Of a DNA stretch of 64,000 nt, positions 11,786 to 21,306 are shown piece by piece. Numbering within the stretch: position 1 is the stretch's first letter; each line of letters opens with the position of its first letter. The notes below the pieces were generated by a model. That model had not been told where the DNA came from. It saw only the letters and a program-made list of their open reading frames with translations, and searched no databases. The translations under genes and the position numbers were made by a program. Source of the stretch: Polyangiaceae bacterium (lineage in GTDB: Bacteria; Myxococcota_A; Polyangia; Polyangiales; Polyangiaceae); NCBI GenBank assembly GCA_019637295.1, contig JAHBVX010000009.1, positions 62,001 through 126,000 of the forward strand, in the 5' to 3' direction.

Positions 11786-13135
11786 TCAGCTACCTTGTCG
11801 CCGCTCCAGCCGAAGCGACGGGTTTTGGGCCGTGCCGACATCTTGCCACGATGTAGGTGGACGTGAGCCGGTGGTCACCTGACCCCAGAAGGTGCTGATG
11901 CCCAGCCAGATGGCCAGACCCTTCAAGTCGCGGAACATCTCCGGCACGTACTGGGGTGCGGCCACGACACCTTCGTGCGCGCGACCCGCCAGGACGGCGA
12001 CGTCATCGAGGTGTACCTTGCCCGCGAACAGCCAGCGGACGAGATCCGCACGCCCACTCGCGATGGCGTGACGCAAGAACTCGTAGTTCTCCACGATGCC
12101 CCGCGTGTACACGATACCCTTCGTGAACGGCCCGCTGCCCTCGAGCAACCCGCCGCGAAACACGCGCTGGGTGTTCCAGAAGCACTGATCGGCGTCATAG
12201 CCCTCGGTGCGAAACCACTCGAACACATCGAGGAAGCTCGCTCCGTCTTCGGCCTTGTCCACGGCGAGCACCCGGTCGTTCAGCCGCCGCGCGCGGTTCG
12301 GGTGGCTACTCAGGGTCAGCACTTCGAGCAGGGCCGCCAGGCCCTCTTGGGCAGAGGCAGTCCGGGGCGGACCCTTCGCCAGCCAGCGCGCCACGGGCTG
12401 GCGCTGGCCGTTCAAGCTGGTCGCCACGTGCACCCAGCCCTCGTGGACCTCGAGCACGGCGATGTCCTGCTCACTGAACAGCGCGCCCTCGCGCACCTTC
12501 ACGTAGTCGCTCCCTGCCGCCGCGTCTGCGACGATGCCGTCGTCGAGCATGACGCGCACCGTGCCGTCGCCGAAGAACTGGCTCAGGCGCTCGTTGAGCA
12601 CGGTGACGACGGTGCTCGCGGGAATGTCTCGAACCGGCTTGGGGCCGAGCTCGTCCTCGTCCAGGTTGGTGAGCAGTCGATACATCTCGATGGCGTAGTC
12701 GCGGACCGGGCGATCGCCGCCCGCTACCGGATCCTTGGCCGAGCCGTACAGGCGACGCGATAGTTCGTAGAAGCGAGCGCTGCCTCGAGCGGTCAGCATC
12801 TCGACGGCGAGGGCGTACTCCTCGGCGGTCTGCAGCAGGATGTTTCCGATGGCGTCTCGCGCTCCGAGCTCGCGCACCACGTCGTCTGCGATGTCGCGGA
12901 ACTCTTGGATCTTGTGCCTCGGGTCGAAGCCGAGCGGCAGCGCGTCGTAGGACTCGCGCTCGACCTGCGGGAGCTCCCGGCAGCGTGACGCGAAGAACGC
13001 CTCGCGCACGCCGGGTCCCCACTTCAGGCAATTGAGGATGCGGATCGGCCTCTGCCCGTCGACGATGCGCGTGGCCAAGCTCGCCACGCGCTCCTTGTAG
13101 GACCGCCAGGGGCCGGGTGACTGCTCGTCTGCCAT
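11786..13135 (-). CDS. DUF1704 / MATCAP-like putative metallopeptidase (QEGLA-motif protein)
   Basis: 449 aa. The protein matches the family annotated in bacteria as flavohemoglobin expression-modulating QEGLA motif protein. Key residues are HEGWVH at 231-236 (an HExxxH zinc-binding pattern) and QEGLA at 263-267, whose Glu264 is a plausible third ligand. The related eukaryotic KIAA0895/MATCAP proteins are tubulin-tail metallopeptidases with the same HExxxH. The substrate in bacteria is not known, and the flavohemoglobin link comes from automatic naming. No signal peptide is present. The gene precedes the kinase in the same orientation, 70 bp away. Confidence 0.85.
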   Translation of the reverse strand: MADEQSPGPWRSYKERVASLATRIVDGQRPIRILNCLKWGPGVREAFFASRCRELPQVERESYDALPLGFDPRHKIQEFRDIADDVVRELGARDAIGNILLQTAEEYALAVEMLTARGSARFYELSRRLYGSAKDPVAGGDRPVRDYAIEMYRLLTNLDEDELGPKPVRDIPASTVVTVLNERLSQFFGDGTVRVMLDDGIVADAAAGSDYVKVREGALFSEQDIAVLEVHEGWVHVATSLNGQRQPVARWLAKGPPRTASAQEGLAALLEVLTLSSHPNRARRLNDRVLAVDKAEDGASFLDVFEWFRTEGYDADQCFWNTQRVFRGGLLEGSGPFTKGIVYTRGIVENYEFLRHAIASGRADLVRWLFAGKVHLDDVAVLAGRAHEGVVAAPQYVPEMFRDLKGLAIWLGISTFWGQVTTGSRPPTSWQDVGTAQNPSLRLERRQGS

Positions 13136-13312: not shown

Positions 13313-15166
13313 ATGAAACGAAGCGTGATTGGTTGGTCGTCCGTGCTGCTCCTGGGCACGTTCGGCTGTGGTAGTGATGGTGACGGTGGTGGTGGCGGCC
13401 CGGCGGCGCCGGTGGTCGATCTCCGAGTCGACAACAACCGCGACGGACAGATCGACTGGGGCGATCCCACCGAGGACGAGAACGAGGACGTCTGGTCCGT
13501 CACGAACGGCGCGGTGTTCCTACCGAACATCGACGACGACTCGGAGCGCTGCCCCCGCGGCGATCAAGGCATTCAAGGCATCAGCGACGTGGCGCTCAAG
13601 GCCTGTCACGATGGCGCCAACGAAGAGATCGACGGCCCGGACGATCTGGCCGACCTCGCTCGCATTCACGTCGTTCCGTGGCCTGGTGCCGGCGCCGGCG
13701 CGACCGGGCGCGTCTCGGTGAACCCGGAGGCGGCGCCCTTCGTCCGGCTGTTCCGCAACGGTGCAGACGGCTGGAAGGTGCTCGACGTCGGACAACTCAG
13801 CCAGGACACGGCGCCGACCTATGCCGCGTTTCTGAGCGCCGAAGAGATCCGAACGGGTGTCGAGCTCGCCATCGAAGGCAAAGATGTCCTGCGCGACGCG
13901 GAAGCGTGGAATGGCTTGGTCAACGTCGAGCTGCAGATCGACCCCGGCGGCGGGGCGGCGCCCAAGACGGACCTGGTGCAGATGCGCATCGCTCCGCTGC
14001 TGCTCTCGCACCACCTGCAGAAGGCCGAGCGCATCTACGTCAGCGCCACGGGCGGCCTCGATTCCGCGGCGTTCCGCCAGGACCTGCAGACCGCGATCGG
14101 CCTGGCGGGAGTGCCCGAGGGCTTGTCCGAGCACTACGTCGGCGACCAGTGGATTCAGGACTGGATGGAGACGGCCTACGTCACCATGCCGGCGCCCGGT
14201 GGCCAGCACAAGATCGACGTGTTCATGCGCTCGGTGAACATCCAGAGCAAGAACGTCGAGTCGCCGCTGCGACCGGCTGGCCGCCAAGTGTACGCGCAGC
14301 TCCACGGCAAGGACAGCGCGGGCTTCACTCCCGACTACGACATCAACTCGCCCGGCCAGATGGACTCGCTCGATTCCTACGGCAACACCGAGACCATCCC
14401 GCCCTACGAGCACAACGGGCAGAGCTACCCTGTCGGTCGCGTCTTCCGCGGTAGCGTCCCGAGCTTCTACGTGGACCCGGCGATGGCGAAGATGCTGGAG
14501 GCGCAGCAGGTTCAGCCCAGGTTGTACGTGGATACCTCCTGGCTGCTCGTGGGCCACGTGGACGAGACAGTGACCTTCTTGAAGATGAACAACGCTCGCG
14601 GTTGGGGTATGGGCGTGAACGACGCGCGCCTCGCCAAGACCATGCTCGAGCAGTACGTGTCTCAGGGCCACGGCGCAGTGACCATGTTCAAGGGCAAGAG
14701 TTGGATCGACTTCCAAGCGCAGAAGTACGTGCCCGCCGAGATCAGCATCGACGGCGTGCTGGCGGACACGGAGGTCATGGCCGAGAGCAACTCCTCCGCG
14801 GTCGAGGTGGATCACCAGATGGACATCATCAAGGCCGAGGTAGGCATCACGGATCAGGACATCATCCCGATGCCCTTCCTGCACATCCGGGCCTCCGGCT
14901 ACTCGCTGGCGTACCAGCCAGGTACCGTCAACGGCATCTACCTGTCGGACACCGATTTCGGTGTGCCCACGCCGCACGGCCCGGTCATCAACGGAGCTGA
15001 CCCGTTCGTGACTCAGCTCAACGAGCAGTTTCAACCCCACGGCATCAAGATCCACTTGATCGAGAACTGGGACCTCTACCACCGGCTGAGCGGCGAGGTG
15101 CATTGCGGAACCAACACCAAACGAGCCCTGCCGACGGGCGCGGCTTGGTGGGAGAGCGGACGATGA
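13313..15166 (+). CDS. Protein-arginine deiminase (PAD) family lipoprotein
   Basis: 617 aa from the ATG at 13313 (Shine-Dalgarno GAGGA). The signal peptide ends in the lipobox TFGC (Cys19), then a Gly linker. Residues 40-51 form a calcium-loop-like DNNRDGQIDWGD. The C-terminal half is the PAD catalytic domain. Its residues, named after human PAD4, are all visible: Asp283 in WIQDWME (Asp350), His415 and Asp417 in VGHVDE (His471/Asp473) and nucleophile Cys598 in GEVHCGTN (Cys645). PADs convert peptidyl-Arg to citrulline with calcium. This one would act outside the cytoplasm. The stop overlaps the ATG of the HEAT-repeat gene. It differs from the agmatine-deiminase-like PPAD of Porphyromonas. Confidence 0.93.
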   Translation: MKRSVIGWSSVLLLGTFGCGSDGDGGGGGPAAPVVDLRVDNNRDGQIDWGDPTEDENEDVWSVTNGAVFLPNIDDDSERCPRGDQGIQGISDVALKACHDGANEEIDGPDDLADLARIHVVPWPGAGAGATGRVSVNPEAAPFVRLFRNGADGWKVLDVGQLSQDTAPTYAAFLSAEEIRTGVELAIEGKDVLRDAEAWNGLVNVELQIDPGGGAAPKTDLVQMRIAPLLLSHHLQKAERIYVSATGGLDSAAFRQDLQTAIGLAGVPEGLSEHYVGDQWIQDWMETAYVTMPAPGGQHKIDVFMRSVNIQSKNVESPLRPAGRQVYAQLHGKDSAGFTPDYDINSPGQMDSLDSYGNTETIPPYEHNGQSYPVGRVFRGSVPSFYVDPAMAKMLEAQQVQPRLYVDTSWLLVGHVDETVTFLKMNNARGWGMGVNDARLAKTMLEQYVSQGHGAVTMFKGKSWIDFQAQKYVPAEISIDGVLADTEVMAESNSSAVEVDHQMDIIKAEVGITDQDIIPMPFLHIRASGYSLAYQPGTVNGIYLSDTDFGVPTPHGPVINGADPFVTQLNEQFQPHGIKIHLIENWDLYHRLSGEVHCGTNTKRALPTGAAWWESGR

Positions 15167-16116
15167 AGACGAACAAGCTCGTGATTTCTACGCTAGCGGC
15201 CGCCCTGCTCTGGGGCGCTACGCTGGCTTCGGCCCACGCCGCGCCGCGGGGCGCCGTACTCTCGCCCTCGGATCTCGAGGCGAGCTATCGGACCGCGCTG
15301 GTCGAGCGCATCGGCAAGGCCCGTGCAGAGCGCCCCGCGGCGTTCCGCAACGTGGACGACGTCCTCTCGGCGGTGCCCGAGCTGGATCGTCGCAAGCGTG
15401 GTCGCTTTGCGACCATCAGCCGCGAGCTCGCGGCGCTCGGTCCGGACGCGCTGATGCCCATGCTCGAGCGGTTGGCGGTGGACGGTCCGGCCCGCGGCAA
15501 GCTCACGGACACCGCGTGGCTCACGCTGCGGATGGGGTTGATCGAGGCGGTCGGCATGCGCCGAGATCCCGTCGCGGTCCCCGTCCTGTGGAAGATCTAC
15601 GAGCAGGAGAGCGAGTACTACGTGGTGCGCTCGGCGGCCGAGGCCCTCGGACGCATCGGCACGGACGACGCGGCGGCCGCCCTCATCAAGCTGGCGCGCA
15701 CGCGCGGGCCGAAGCAACTCGCGGTGCTGTCTGCCATCGGGGATTGCCGTCGTACCGTCGTCGCGCGCGGACTGGAGGAGTTCCTGCGCAGCTCGCCGGA
15801 GTACGAGGCTACTCGTCTCGCCATCCGCGCCCTGGGCGACGTGGGTAACTCTTGGGCCTGGGAGACACCTGCGGTCAAGAAGACCGGTGAAGGCGCGGTC
15901 GTGCGCAGCACCGCGGCCAAGGCGCTCGTGGACGCGTTCGCGCGTCACCATCGTGACGAGGTGCTCCGCATCGCCGCACAGAAGGCGCTGCTCGTGGTGG
16001 CTGACCCAGCCACCCCCGGCATGATCGAGGCGGCGAAGTCCGGCGCAGATCCGCGGCTCGCAGCCCGGCTCGATCAGCTGAAGCTGAAGTTCGTCAGCTA
16101 CACGACGAAGAAGTGA
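15163..16116 (+). CDS. Exported HEAT-repeat protein of PAD operon
   Basis: 317 aa. The ATG at 15163 overlaps the PAD stop (ATGA). A Sec signal (LVISTLAAALLWGATLASAHA) precedes an all-helical body with HEAT-like repeats at about 100-290, for example AVPVLWKIYEQESEYYVVRS, AAEALGRIGTDDAAAALIKLA, TRLAIRALGDVG and RIAAQKALLVV. HEAT repeats make protein-binding solenoids, so it may be a partner, inhibitor or substrate-presenting factor for the deiminase; this is inference from the operon. The terminal GTGA overlap leads into the Cys-rich lipoprotein gene. Confidence 0.85.
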   Translation: MKTNKLVISTLAAALLWGATLASAHAAPRGAVLSPSDLEASYRTALVERIGKARAERPAAFRNVDDVLSAVPELDRRKRGRFATISRELAALGPDALMPMLERLAVDGPARGKLTDTAWLTLRMGLIEAVGMRRDPVAVPVLWKIYEQESEYYVVRSAAEALGRIGTDDAAAALIKLARTRGPKQLAVLSAIGDCRRTVVARGLEEFLRSSPEYEATRLAIRALGDVGNSWAWETPAVKKTGEGAVVRSTAAKALVDAFARHHRDEVLRIAAQKALLVVADPATPGMIEAAKSGADPRLAARLDQLKLKFVSYTTKK

Positions 16117-16418
16117 GCGCCCGGCGCGCGCTCGGGCTGGCGTTGCTCTCGCTTGGAGCGGCCGGCTGCCGCTCCAAGCCCGACAGCGCGGCCCTGGCTC
16201 CCTCAACTGGCGCCGAGCCGGCTCGCTCGGTCGCGACGACTCCGGTCGCCGCGTCGGCCGCGGCTCTCGAGCCCGAGCCTACTGGCGAAGACAACTGCTG
16301 CATGGGCAAGAACTCGTGCAAGGGCAAAGGCGGCTGCGGCGTGCCCGAGAGCCACGCTTGCGCGGGACAGAACGACTGTCGCGCCAAGGGCGGCTGCCGC
16401 GCGCACTGCCCGAAGTGA
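16113..16418 (+). CDS. Small Cys-rich lipoprotein of PAD operon
   Basis: 101 aa, GTG start overlapping the HEAT-gene stop (GTGA). Signal with lipobox GAAGC (Cys19). After an Ala/Pro spacer come two related units, NCCMGKNSCKGKGGC and HACAGQNDCRAKGGC, and a final CRAHC. The twin Cys/Lys/Gly motif is typical of small exported proteins of unknown function in Proteobacteria and Myxococcota, and could bind a metal or form disulfides. Its position as third gene of the PAD operon is the only hint of its role. Confidence 0.78.
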   Translation: MSARRALGLALLSLGAAGCRSKPDSAALAPSTGAEPARSVATTPVAASAAALEPEPTGEDNCCMGKNSCKGKGGCGVPESHACAGQNDCRAKGGCRAHCPK

Positions 16419-18175: not shown

Positions 18176-21100
18176 TCACACCCTCTCCGGCGTCGGGCGC
18201 ACCGCCATCGCGGCCAGGTAGCGGGGAATCGAAGCGTCCGGGGGTCGCGGGCCAGGGAAGAGCGCGCAGCACAGCGCTTTGGCCTCGTGGATGCCGACGT
18301 TGGGCTCGCCCAGCAGCGGGATCAGGTCGTTGGTGACGTCGCCCGTGACGTGACCGCGTCCGCCCCAGTGGAACGGCATCGCTACTTGGTGCACCCAGCG
18401 CCCCGCCACGAACAACGGCCGCATGCGCGCCGTCACGAGCGCGCGGGCTTGGACAGCGCCCCGCGGGGTGACCACCGTCGCGACGCCTCCGTGCTCGATA
18501 CCGAGGGAGGTCGCGAGCTCCGGGGACAGCTCGACGAACAGCTCCGGCATCAGCTCGGCGAGGTGCGTGAGGAAACGACTCATCCCGCCGGCGGTGTGGT
18601 GCTCGGTGAGGCGATACGTCGTGAGCACGATCGGAAACCGCGGATCCCCCGGTTCTGCCAGCGGATTGTCGGGCCGGACGTGCAGGCGCGCAACGGGGTT
18701 CTTCTGCTGCTCGTACACGCTGTTGTCCACCGGCGACTCGATGGCCTCGTAGTGACTGGGCAACGGGCCGTCGGCCAACCCCTTGGCGACGAAGAGTTGG
18801 CTCAAGCCGTCCGCCTGCATCACGAAGGGAGCATCACCGCGCAGCGCGGCAAGCCCCACGGCGCCGGGCGGCGGTCGGTAGTCCGGCGCCTTGTCGGCGA
18901 CGAAGTCGGGAACGTCGAGGCCCGTCCAGCGACGTCGCTCGTGGTCCCACCACACGAGCTTCTTCGCCTCGCTCCAGGGAGCGCCGTCCGGACGGGCTGA
19001 CGCGCGGTTGTACAGGATGCGGCGATCCGCGGGCCAAGCGTACCCCCAGCCGTGGAAATAGGCACCCTCGGGCGCGCGCTGGCGTGCCCGATTGACGCCG
19101 TCCGGGCCGAGCACTCCCGAGTAGATCCAACATCCGCAGGCGGTGGAGCCGTCCGCGCGAAGGTCGGCGAAGCCGGCGACCTGCGGCCCGTGGTGCGCGC
19201 CGTCGTCCGGCTCCGTGTGGTAGCCGTTGATCTCCGCCAGCACGGCGTGCACCTCGGGCTCGCCGTGCTCGTTCTCGGGATACCACCAGTCCAGCGCGCG
19301 TAGGGGCTCGTCCTCGCTCCGCGCCGAGACGTCGGCCATCTCCTTCAGGCGCCGGGCCAGCTGGTGGACGAACCACAGCTCGCTCTTGGCGTCCCCGGGT
19401 GGCTCGACGGCCTTGTCCCGAAACTGCAGGAGTCGCTGGGTGTTGGTGAAGGTCCCCGCCTTCTCGGCGTGTCCGGCGGCCGGCATCAGGAACACCTCCG
19501 TCCCGATCTCGGTCGTGTGCAGCTCACCACGGCGCACCTCCGGTGAGTCGTACCAGAAGCTGGCCGTCTCCACTTCCACCAGATCACGTACGACCAGCCA
19601 CTTGAGTCGTGACAGCGCGGTGCGCTCGAAGCGCGCGTGCTGACCGCCGACGGCCGGGTTCTGGCCCATCACGAACAGCCCCTCCACCTTGCCGTCCATC
19701 ATCTCCATGAAGTAGCCGAAGTGGGAGTGGTCTCGCGTGATGCGCGGCAAGAAATCGAAGCCCCAGTCGTTGTCCGCGCGGGCGCGGCCGCCGTAGTAGG
19801 CCTTGAGCAAGCTCACGACGTATCCGTCCGCGTCGTGCCAGCCGCCGCCTCGACTGCGCACGGCGCCCAAGTACTGGTCCAAGCTGGTGTGTACGCCAGC
19901 CTTGGGCATGGGGAGGTACCCGGGCAACAGGTCATAGAGCGTGGGGATGTCCGTGGAGCCCTGGATGGACGCGTGCCCACGCAGCGCCAGGATACCCCCA
20001 CCCGGACGCCCCACGTTGCCGAGCAACAACTGCAGGATGGCGCCCGCGCGAATGATTTGCACGCCCTTGCTGTGCTGCGTCCAGCCGACGGCGTAGCACA
20101 GCGCCGCCGTCTTGTCGGGACCCGAGGCGTCCGTGAGGGCGCGGGCCAGCTGCGCGAACAGCTCGGGCGGGACGCCGCACACGTCGCGCACGAGCTCGGG
20201 CGTGTAGCGTTGGAAGTGGCGGCGCAGCAGCTGCAGCACGCAGCGTGGATCCGTCAGCGTCTCGTCGCGCTCGGGGCGCGCGGGGTCGTCTCCCGCGAAG
20301 CGCCAGCTCGCTCCGTCGTAAGCCCCCTGCTCGGGGTCGTAGCCCGAGAACAGGCCTGCCAGGTCTTCGGTGTCACGGAAGTGCTCGCCCACGAGCACGC
20401 TCGCGTTGGTGAACGCCAGCACATACTCGCGGAAGTACAGCTCGTGCTCGAGCACGTGGCGGATCAGGCCGCCGAGCAGCACGATGTCCGTGCCAGCTCG
20501 CAGCGGGATCCACAGATCCGCCAGCGCGCTCGTGCGGGAGAAGCGAGGATCGACGTGGATGACGGTGGCGCCACGCTCCTTGGCTGCGACCACCCAGCGG
20601 AAGGCCACCGGATGTGCTTCGGCCATGCTCGACCCCTGGATCAGGATGCAGTCCGCGCGCAAGAGATCCTGCGGGGCGGTGGTGGCGCCGCCACGTCCCA
20701 GGGTGGTGCCCAGACCGGGCACCGTGGAGGAGTGTCATATTCGCGCTTGATTGGACACGCTGACCAGACCCAGGCCCGCCGTGAACAGCTTCTTGAGCAG
20801 GTAGTTCTCTTCGTCGTCGAGGGTCGCGCCGCCGAGGTGAGCTACCGCGCTCGAGTGACCGACACGCTCTCCCGCGACTTCCTTGACGAAGGTCCGCGCA
20901 CGCGACTCCCACACGAGCTGGGCGATGCGATCCATGGCCCAGCTCGTGCTGACTACCTCCCACGCGCGGGTGTGAGGAGCGCGATACAGCACCTGGGTAA
21001 GCCGGGCGGGATGGGTGAGCAGCTCGAGGCTGGCTGCCCCCTTGGGGCACAGGGTGCCCTGATTGATGGGGCTCTCGGGATCGCCCTCGATGGCGACCAG

Positions 21101-21289
21101 CTCACCGTCCCGGTGGTGCACCAGCTGTCCGCAGCCAACGGCGCAGTAAGGACACACCGAGCGCGTGGTCTGCGAGCCCGTGGTCCGTGCCGAGAGCTGG
21201 CGCGTACGCGGGGACATGGCCTCGGTCCCGGTGCCGTCTTTGCGACCGAAGATCTGAGCGAAGAGAGGGAGTCCGCGAAAGCCCGCCAT
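18176..21289 (-). CDS. Selenocysteine-containing formate dehydrogenase catalytic (alpha) subunit
   Basis: 1037 aa if TGA at 20735-20737 is read as selenocysteine 185. The parts before and after the TGA are in the same frame and both match the family: QARI, Sec, HSSTVPGLGTTLGRGG, as in FdnG/FdhF-type enzymes. One [4Fe-4S] cluster is bound by Cys46, Cys49, Cys53 (CPYCAVGCG) and Cys81. Molybdopterin-binding regions follow, e.g. GSSMAEAHPVAFRWV and HVDPRFSRTSALADLW. A SECIS hairpin follows the TGA. The N terminus has no twin-arginine signal, unlike FdnG, so this enzyme may face the cytoplasm. It oxidises formate to CO2. The operon continues with FeS and NrfD-like subunits. Confidence 0.94.
20705..20723 (-). 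promoter_or_regulatory. Bacterial SECIS element of the formate dehydrogenase mRNA
   Basis: On the minus strand the 7-bp stem GGTGCCC / GGGCACC is perfect and encloses the loop GGTCT. The loop begins 18 nt after the in-frame TGA. From what I know of the E. coli fdhF SECIS, the apical loop there is also GGUCU and starts 18 nt after UGA. SelB binds this loop and delivers Sec-tRNA to the UGA codon. Confidence 0.9.
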
Positions 21290-21306
21290 CCGGCGAGCTT
21301 ATCGCA

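What the first reader, a model, noticed from the sequence alone, without database searches (positions are those of the whole stretch)
13313..15166. Bacterial peptidylarginine deiminase lipoprotein with an intact vertebrate-type active site
All four catalytic residues of human PAD4 (Asp350, His471, Asp473, Cys645) have visible counterparts: Asp283, His415, Asp417 and Cys598, in conserved surroundings WIQD, GHVDE and GEVHCGTN. Lipobox and Gly linker predict display outside the cytoplasm, and a calcium-loop-like segment lies at residues 40-51. A surface citrullinating enzyme could modify prey, host or own surface proteins.
Basis: partly seen in the sequence, partly recalled or inferred. Interest (0 to 1): 0.75.

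Follow-up and report, generated by a model that had tools for sequence, protein, structure and literature searches.

The report
Citrullinating lipoprotein with coupled HEAT partner
A myxobacterial genome encodes an exported version of the human protein-citrullinating enzyme PAD, and in its relatives this gene is nearly always coupled to a gene for a secreted helical-repeat protein, which hints that bacteria keep this enzyme under the control of a dedicated partner.

Summary
The gene is real: 13313-15166 encodes a lipoprotein-type peptidylarginine deiminase (PF03068, E 2.5e-84) with all four PAD4 catalytic residues; its model superposes on PAD4 with a bound histone peptide at Z 50.9, 2.0 A over 515 residues. 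PADs are common in this phylum (71 of 282 sampled genomes) and two-domain bacterial PADs are published, so the enzyme alone is a new member of a known kind. 'Vertebrate-type' holds for catalysis only: no PAD_N domain, and calcium site 2 is gone (E351 to W284, D369 to R306).

The larger finding is the next gene, 15163-16116: a secreted HEAT-repeat protein whose start overlaps the PAD stop by four bases. Strong HEAT matches occur in 44 of the 71 PAD genomes and 0 of the 211 without PAD; 52 of 53 lie beside a PAD. In 80 named PAD loci it is adjacent in 62 of 66 myxobacterial-type and 0 of 14 Streptomyces loci; 59 of the 62 pairs keep a four-base overlap. HEAT-linked PADs all lack calcium site 2; a second, HEAT-less PAD lineage keeps it. 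Most likely HEAT binds and regulates PAD; binding and activity are untested here.

The parts
13313..15166 (+). PAD gene, stop codon included (617 aa lipoprotein-type peptidylarginine deiminase)
13313..13366 (+). lipoprotein signal peptide, residues 1-18; predicted lipidated Cys19 at 13367-13369
   Evidence: sequence; pattern recalled; similar N-termini in many relatives
13370..13411 (+). Gly/Asp-rich linker (residues 20-33)
   Evidence: low pLDDT at model residues 1-11
13430..13456 (+). calcium loop, residues 40-48 (D40, N42, D44, D48), PAD2 Ca6-like
   Evidence: alignment to PAD2
13967..15154 (+). PAD catalytic domain PF03068, residues 219-614; D283 (14159-14161), H415 (14555-14557), D417 (14561-14563), C598 (15104-15106)
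14162..14230 (+). former calcium site 2: W284 (14162-14164) and R306 (14228-14230) in place of PAD4 E351 and D369
15163..15166 (+). ATGA: start of the HEAT gene overlapping the PAD stop; GGAGAG at 15151-15156 lies six bases before the ATG
15163..16116 (+). HEAT-repeat gene (317 aa, Sec-type signal peptide by eye), PAD-linked partner

Best explanation
The locus is a two-gene module: an exported, lipid-anchored PAD that should convert arginine to citrulline in proteins of the envelope or of neighbouring cells, and a dedicated exported HEAT-repeat protein made from the same message by coupled translation. Shown: PAD fold and catalytic residues, loss of calcium site 2, and near-obligate pairing with a conserved start/stop overlap. 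Inferred: that HEAT binds PAD, and that it regulates it. Calcium outside the cytoplasm is plentiful, so a calcium-activated PAD there would have no on/off switch, and these PADs have lost the calcium (Ca2) whose binding completes the active site in human PADs. A partner that blocks or orders the active-site loops would replace that switch. Whether it inhibits (self-protection until the enzyme is displayed) or activates is open; I put inhibition slightly ahead.
For: Strong HEAT matches (E under 1e-14): 53 in 44 genomes, all among the 71 PAD genomes and none in the 211 without PAD; 51 directly downstream and 1 directly upstream of a PAD, 1 on a contig fragment of a genome whose PAD sits 71 bases from a contig end. 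Named loci: HEAT adjacent in 62 of 66 myxobacterial-type loci; four-base overlap in 55 of 58 downstream pairs, and the same stop pattern and frame offset in 4 of 4 swapped pairs. PAD and HEAT distances correlate, r 0.77 over 91 distinct pairs against at most 0.15 in 500 permutations. All 97 distinct HEAT-linked PADs lack calcium site 2. The largest other neighbour cluster covers 11 of 81 loci. PAD4 can be switched on at lower calcium by a bound peptide (PMC11555231, passages).
Against: No binding was shown: the read-through PAD-HEAT model has pTM 0.68 with a disordered joint. Streptomyces PADs (0 of 14 with HEAT) and two solitary myxobacterial PADs (L100, L141) also lack calcium site 2, so its loss does not require an adjacent HEAT; the two solitary ones lie in genomes with other PAD-HEAT pairs. 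Permutation tests on related sequences overstate co-evolution, and in 5 of 11 genomes with several pairs a PAD profile fitted another HEAT better. HEAT repeats are generic binders, so the fold does not tell the effect.
Confidence: 0.55

Rival explanations
1. HEAT is an adaptor or reader: it captures target proteins, or their citrullinated forms, for PAD without changing PAD activity.
For: HEAT repeats are protein binders; weak similarity to bilin-lyase HEAT proteins CpcE and NblB, far below their cut-offs, and to alphaRep and phycocyanobilin lyase structures. Export of both proteins.
Against: A reader need not be coupled gene by gene to each PAD copy; no target gene travels with the pair.
Confidence: 0.2
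2. HEAT is a dedicated folding or export chaperone of PAD, or its main substrate.
For: Start/stop overlap suggests matched amounts; conserved Arg residues R79 (93 of 97), R196, R197 and R248 in HEAT could be substrate sites.
Against: HEAT-less PADs with the same fold exist in Streptomyces and in a second myxobacterial lineage, so a chaperone is not generally needed.
Confidence: 0.17
3. PAD acts alone as a surface effector on prey or host proteins and HEAT is a bystander.
For: Complete catalytic residues, export signal and linker; relatives are mostly myxobacteria; solitary PADs exist.
Against: A bystander would not keep the overlap across a phylum, stay beside PAD after order swaps and duplications, and be missing from PAD-less genomes.
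Confidence: 0.08

Closest known systems
Human PAD4 (PADI4), e.g. PDB 2dey, 1wda
   Same: PAD_M plus PAD_C fold (Z 50.9, 2.0 A over 515 residues), four catalytic residues, ligands of calcium sites 1, 3 and 4
   Different: No PAD_N domain, calcium site 2 lost, exported lipoprotein, coupled to a HEAT gene
Two-domain actinobacterial, fungal and proteobacterial PADs (PMC8826395; passages and sections 5, 9 and first part of 10 seen)
   Same: No PAD_N, no calcium site 2, N and D in the Ca6-like loop, groups with Streptomyces PADs
   Different: Keeps the Asp at the calcium-switch position (D334), which that paper reports as Gly; lipoprotein instead of a plain signal peptide; HEAT partner
Three-domain cyanobacterial PAD (cyanoPADI, PMC8826395 section 9)
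   Same: A bacterial PAD with the same catalytic residues; that enzyme is active and calcium-dependent
   Different: Has PAD_N and calcium sites 2 and 4; no HEAT partner mentioned in the parts I saw
HEAT-like bilin-lyase and phycobilisome proteins CpcE, NblB
   Same: HEAT-like repeats, weak profile match (E 1e-4)
   Different: Far below the family cut-offs; own conserved motifs (GxGxCRR, WAW), signal peptide, linkage to PAD

Membership tests
Peptidylarginine deiminase (PF03068) | PAD catalytic domain with D-H-D-C residues | tested here: met
   PF03068 E 2.5e-84; D283, H415, D417, C598
Peptidylarginine deiminase (PF03068) | Guanidino-modifying fold as in PAD4 | tested here: met
   Model pLDDT 94.8, pTM 0.93; PAD4 Z 51
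Peptidylarginine deiminase (PF03068) | Calcium-dependent deimination of protein arginine | not testable with these tools
   needs an enzyme assay
Vertebrate/cyanobacterial three-domain PADI | PAD_N domain | tested here: not met
   Model aligns to PAD4 residues 112-663 only; before it lie only the signal peptide and a linker
Vertebrate/cyanobacterial three-domain PADI | Calcium site 2 ligands E351, D369, N373 | tested here: not met
   W284, R306, I310
Two-domain PADI of actinobacteria and fungi (PMC8826395) | No PAD_N and no calcium site 2 | tested here: met
Two-domain PADI of actinobacteria and fungi (PMC8826395) | Triple-His motif at the PAD_M/PAD_C hinge | tested here: inconclusive
   Window has two His (SHHL); 54 of 66 named myxobacterial-type rows have HH, 3 HHH, 9 neither; Streptomyces 11 of 14 HHH
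Two-domain PADI of actinobacteria and fungi (PMC8826395) | Gly at the calcium-switch position (PAD2 D389) | tested here: not met
   D334 in the window; Asp in 56 of 66 myxobacterial-type and 12 of 14 Streptomyces rows by my alignment. I therefore file it with the Streptomyces-side PADs by tree, not by this feature
Porphyromonas-type PPAD | Its own Pfam family (recalled) instead of PF03068 | tested here: not met
   Only PF03068 matched; PMC8826395 keeps pPAD apart from PADI
Toxin-immunity pair (considered) | Partner neutralises an enzyme that harms a cell lacking the partner | not testable with these tools
   Only the gene pairing is shown; docking inconclusive

The most novel reading that the evidence does not exclude
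HEAT is the natural protein switch of a PAD: it binds the active-site loops and does the work that calcium ion 2 does in animals, or holds the enzyme shut, so that citrullination in the bacterial envelope is ruled by a dedicated protein and not by calcium. It would be a genetically encoded PAD regulator conserved across a bacterial phylum.
Probability: 0.35. Interest if true: 0.8.

Novelty: new variant of a known kind. Interest (0 to 1): 0.55.

Why it matters
How animal PADs become active at cellular calcium levels is an open question, and PMC11555231 (passages) raises protein binding partners as one answer. A PAD family that nearly always travels with one partner gene makes that idea directly testable with two purified proteins. 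The phylum also holds a second PAD lineage that keeps calcium site 2 without PAD_N, which bears on the published view that calcium sites 2 and 4 are exclusive to animal and late cyanobacterial PADs (PMC8826395, passages).

Tried and rejected
Lone effector: set low because of the conserved HEAT pairing.

Larger operon: an all-against-all comparison of neighbouring frames in 80 loci plus the window found no third family tied to the pair; the widest cluster covers 11 of 81 loci and I did not identify it. A pattern made for the Cys-rich gene after HEAT found nothing in the 80 loci; the pattern was not tried on the window itself, so this is weak.

Phage or plasmid cargo: no match in phages; 4 plasmid records, 3 Streptomyces and 1 Embleya.

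Docking by a read-through chain: both parts fold, pTM 0.68, joint disordered; not informative. A first mixed alignment laid HEAT rows over PAD and was dropped; repaired this.

Calcium site 2 of the HEAT-less lineage: a mixed alignment put D369 one column off; a separate alignment with PAD4 gave the counts used. One divergent row (L183) was left out.

PAD4 Arg374 (substrate contact, recalled) has no clear counterpart (Q311 by alignment); not interpreted.

Active-like shape of the model: closer to calcium-bound than to inactive PAD3 (Z 49.3 against 43.8), but PAD2 shows no such difference (4n20 at 0 mM calcium 43.0, 4n2b at 10 mM 42.7). Not used.

Literature: searches listed no paper whose title or abstract start treats a myxobacterial PAD or a PAD-HEAT pair; the library lacks most subscription papers. 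HEAT was not found in 198 Actinomycetota genomes, but that set had no positive control.

One search failed on a wrong coordinate; one search replaced it. Structure tickets were polled several times before they were ready.

Full report
What was claimed.

Check of the observation. The frame encodes 617 aa with one Pfam match, PAD PF03068, E 2.5e-84, residues 219-614. Single-sequence search of solved structures gives human PAD1 (1.3e-42), PAD2 (3.4e-40) and PAD4 (about 2e-37); a profile of 48 relatives matches PAD4 from residue 115 to near its end, E 7.4e-119. D283, H415, D417 and C598 align with D350, H471, D473 and C645 and do not vary in 66 named myxobacterial-type rows, 48 rows of A1 or 14 Streptomyces rows. 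AlphaFold2 with a 98-row alignment gives mean pLDDT 94.8 and pTM 0.93. Foldseek puts PADs on top; VIA-align gives Z 51.0 to 50.7, rmsd 1.9-2.0 A over 511-520 residues for the ten best PAD4 rows, among them 2dey with a histone peptide (Z 50.9, 2.0 A, 515 residues), model 14-599 on chain 112-663. So the protein is PAD_M plus PAD_C without PAD_N.

Calcium sites. PAD4 ligands come from the mutant table of PMC5445078 (passages): Ca1 Q349/E353/E411, Ca2 E351/D369/N373, Ca3 N153/D155/D157/D165/D176/D179, Ca4 D155/D157/D179/D388. In the window protein Ca1 is Q282/E286/E360, Ca3 is N72/D74/D76/D100/D111/D114 and Ca4 is D74/D76/D114/D334, all kept; Ca2 is W284/R306/I310, lost; of Ca5 residue D168 is N103. 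PMC8826395 (passages) says that Ca2 and Ca4 are exclusive to animal and late cyanobacterial PADs and that the switch residue D389 of PAD2 is Gly in actinobacteria and fungi. By my alignment the Asp is present here, in 56 of 66 named myxobacterial-type rows and in 12 of 14 Streptomyces; the paper's sample or alignment may differ. The Ca2-site triple mutant of PAD4 kept a tenth of kcat (1.45 against 14.5 per second), while N373A alone is said to be dead (PMC11402830, passages), so the effect of losing Ca2 in a bacterial enzyme cannot be foretold.

Distribution. PF03068 occurs in 71 of 282 sampled genomes of the window's phylum and in 3 of 198 Actinomycetota genomes, one of which was the centre, chosen because it has a PAD. 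The window's genome has two PADs, 51% identical. PMC8826395 counted 69 of 16,196 Proteobacteria species with a PAD (section 5). The 66 named non-Streptomyces loci bear titles such as Myxococcales, Polyangiaceae, Myxococcaceae or Deltaproteobacteria; two say only 'bacterium' and two 'Proteobacteria'.

The partner gene. The next gene, 15163-16116, encodes a HEAT-repeat protein (PF13646, E 1.3e-11) with a Sec-type signal peptide by eye; its ATG overlaps the PAD TGA by four bases and GGAGAG lies six bases before it. The genome has two copies at E up to 0.001, each directly after one of the two PADs. In the 282-genome set there were 59 HEAT matches at E up to 1e-5 in 49 genomes: 51 directly downstream of a PAD on the same strand, 1 directly upstream (G032), 7 on contigs without a PAD. 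Of these 7, one is strong (G234, 2e-16; that genome's PAD lies 71 bases from a contig end) and six are weak (1.1e-9 to 5.9e-6), probably generic HEAT proteins. Counting only matches under 1e-14 (53 places), HEAT is in 44 of the 71 PAD genomes and in none of the other 211; the tool scored at most 8 candidates a genome, so a few may be missed.

Named loci. The scan kept the best 80 of at least 507 relatives, ranked by similarity to an alignment made mostly of HEAT-linked PADs, so this set favours them. HEAT is adjacent in 62 of 66 myxobacterial-type loci (58 after the PAD; 4 before it: L112, L115, L125, L139) and in 0 of 14 Streptomyces. Of the four without it, L110 and L138 end at a contig end and L100 and L141 lack it. 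L100 and L141 lie in genomes with other PAD-HEAT pairs; in four whole genomes all 5 strong HEAT copies stand beside a PAD, one weak match (2.5e-9) does not. Seven of 8 Streptomyces genomes had no HEAT match at 1e-8; one had a partial one (1.7e-11).

Coupling. In 55 of 58 PAD-then-HEAT pairs the HEAT start overlaps the PAD stop as ATGA or GTGA; the three others are L087, L101 and L136. In the 4 swapped pairs the HEAT stop reads ATGA or GTGA with the same frame offset to PAD.

Co-inheritance. Over 97 pairs (91 distinct, since some loci come from both collections) PAD and HEAT distances correlate at r 0.77; the highest of 500 permutations was 0.18 and 0.15 for the distinct pairs. Of 11 genomes with several pairs, every PAD profile fitted its own HEAT best in 6, at times by small margins; in 5 it did not: in G276 one PAD (L064) fitted another HEAT clearly better (0.60 against 0.32), in the other four the differences were at most 0.08. 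HEAT diverges faster (mean distance 0.69 against 0.58).

Two PAD lineages. A quick maximum-likelihood tree of 101 rows (SH-aLRT support, midpoint drawing) splits 76 rows (70 HEAT-linked, counting L006 at a contig end; 4 Streptomyces; L100 and L141) from 25 rows (24 HEAT-less myxobacterial PADs and human PAD4), support 97; L183 and PAD4 are long branches whose place is unsure. Streptomyces fall inside the HEAT-linked side, which suggests that HEAT was lost there, if the root lies between the two sides. I fetched PADs of 25 of the 27 PAD genomes without strong HEAT; no HEAT was found in those loci. In 25 such PADs, E351 is kept in 25 and D369 in 24, with one Asn (L183 left out). Among 97 distinct HEAT-linked PADs none keeps the pair. 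PADs without Ca2 and without an adjacent HEAT are the Streptomyces ones and L100 and L141.

Mechanism. [quoted passage not shown] A PAD outside the cytoplasm meets ample calcium, so calcium is a poor switch there (inference). A co-translated, co-exported partner is the natural candidate. I could not show binding: a read-through chain of PAD and HEAT from L101, a relative whose two genes share a frame, gave good folds for both parts but pTM 0.68.

Verdict. The PAD-HEAT module, not seen in searches, makes it a new variant of a known kind.

Noticed in passing
18176-21298 (-), in-frame TGA at 20735-20737: Formate dehydrogenase alpha gene read through an in-frame TGA in the context QARI-TGA-HSSTVPGLG, as expected for selenocysteine; followed by genes for a ferredoxin-type beta subunit and an NrfD-like subunit.
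   Followed up: partly
16113-16418 (+): A 101-aa Cys-rich lipoprotein-like frame, weakly similar to BufA2 bufferins (E 2.9e-6, below cut-off), starts with GTGA overlap on the HEAT stop; not found beside other PADs by a pattern.
   Followed up: partly
11786-13135 (-): Divergent neighbour of the MATCAP/QEGLA family (PF08014, E 6.7e-123), relatives of vertebrate tubulin carboxypeptidases.
   Followed up: no
L002 1498-4209 (-); also L008 and L013: The second PAD of this genome and relatives carry Cys-rich repeats between lipobox and enzyme that look like somatomedin B domains (recalled motif).
   Followed up: no
L005 16-2700 (+): A PAD with a very long Asp-Thr repeat linker between lipobox and enzyme.
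   Followed up: no
L025, L029, L031, L082, L083, L164-L182: HEAT-less myxobacterial PADs with a short PAD_M and a vertebrate-like calcium site 2.
   Followed up: partly
L193, L194 (genome G490): A 2.9 Mb Actinomycetota genome with three PAD genes.
   Followed up: no
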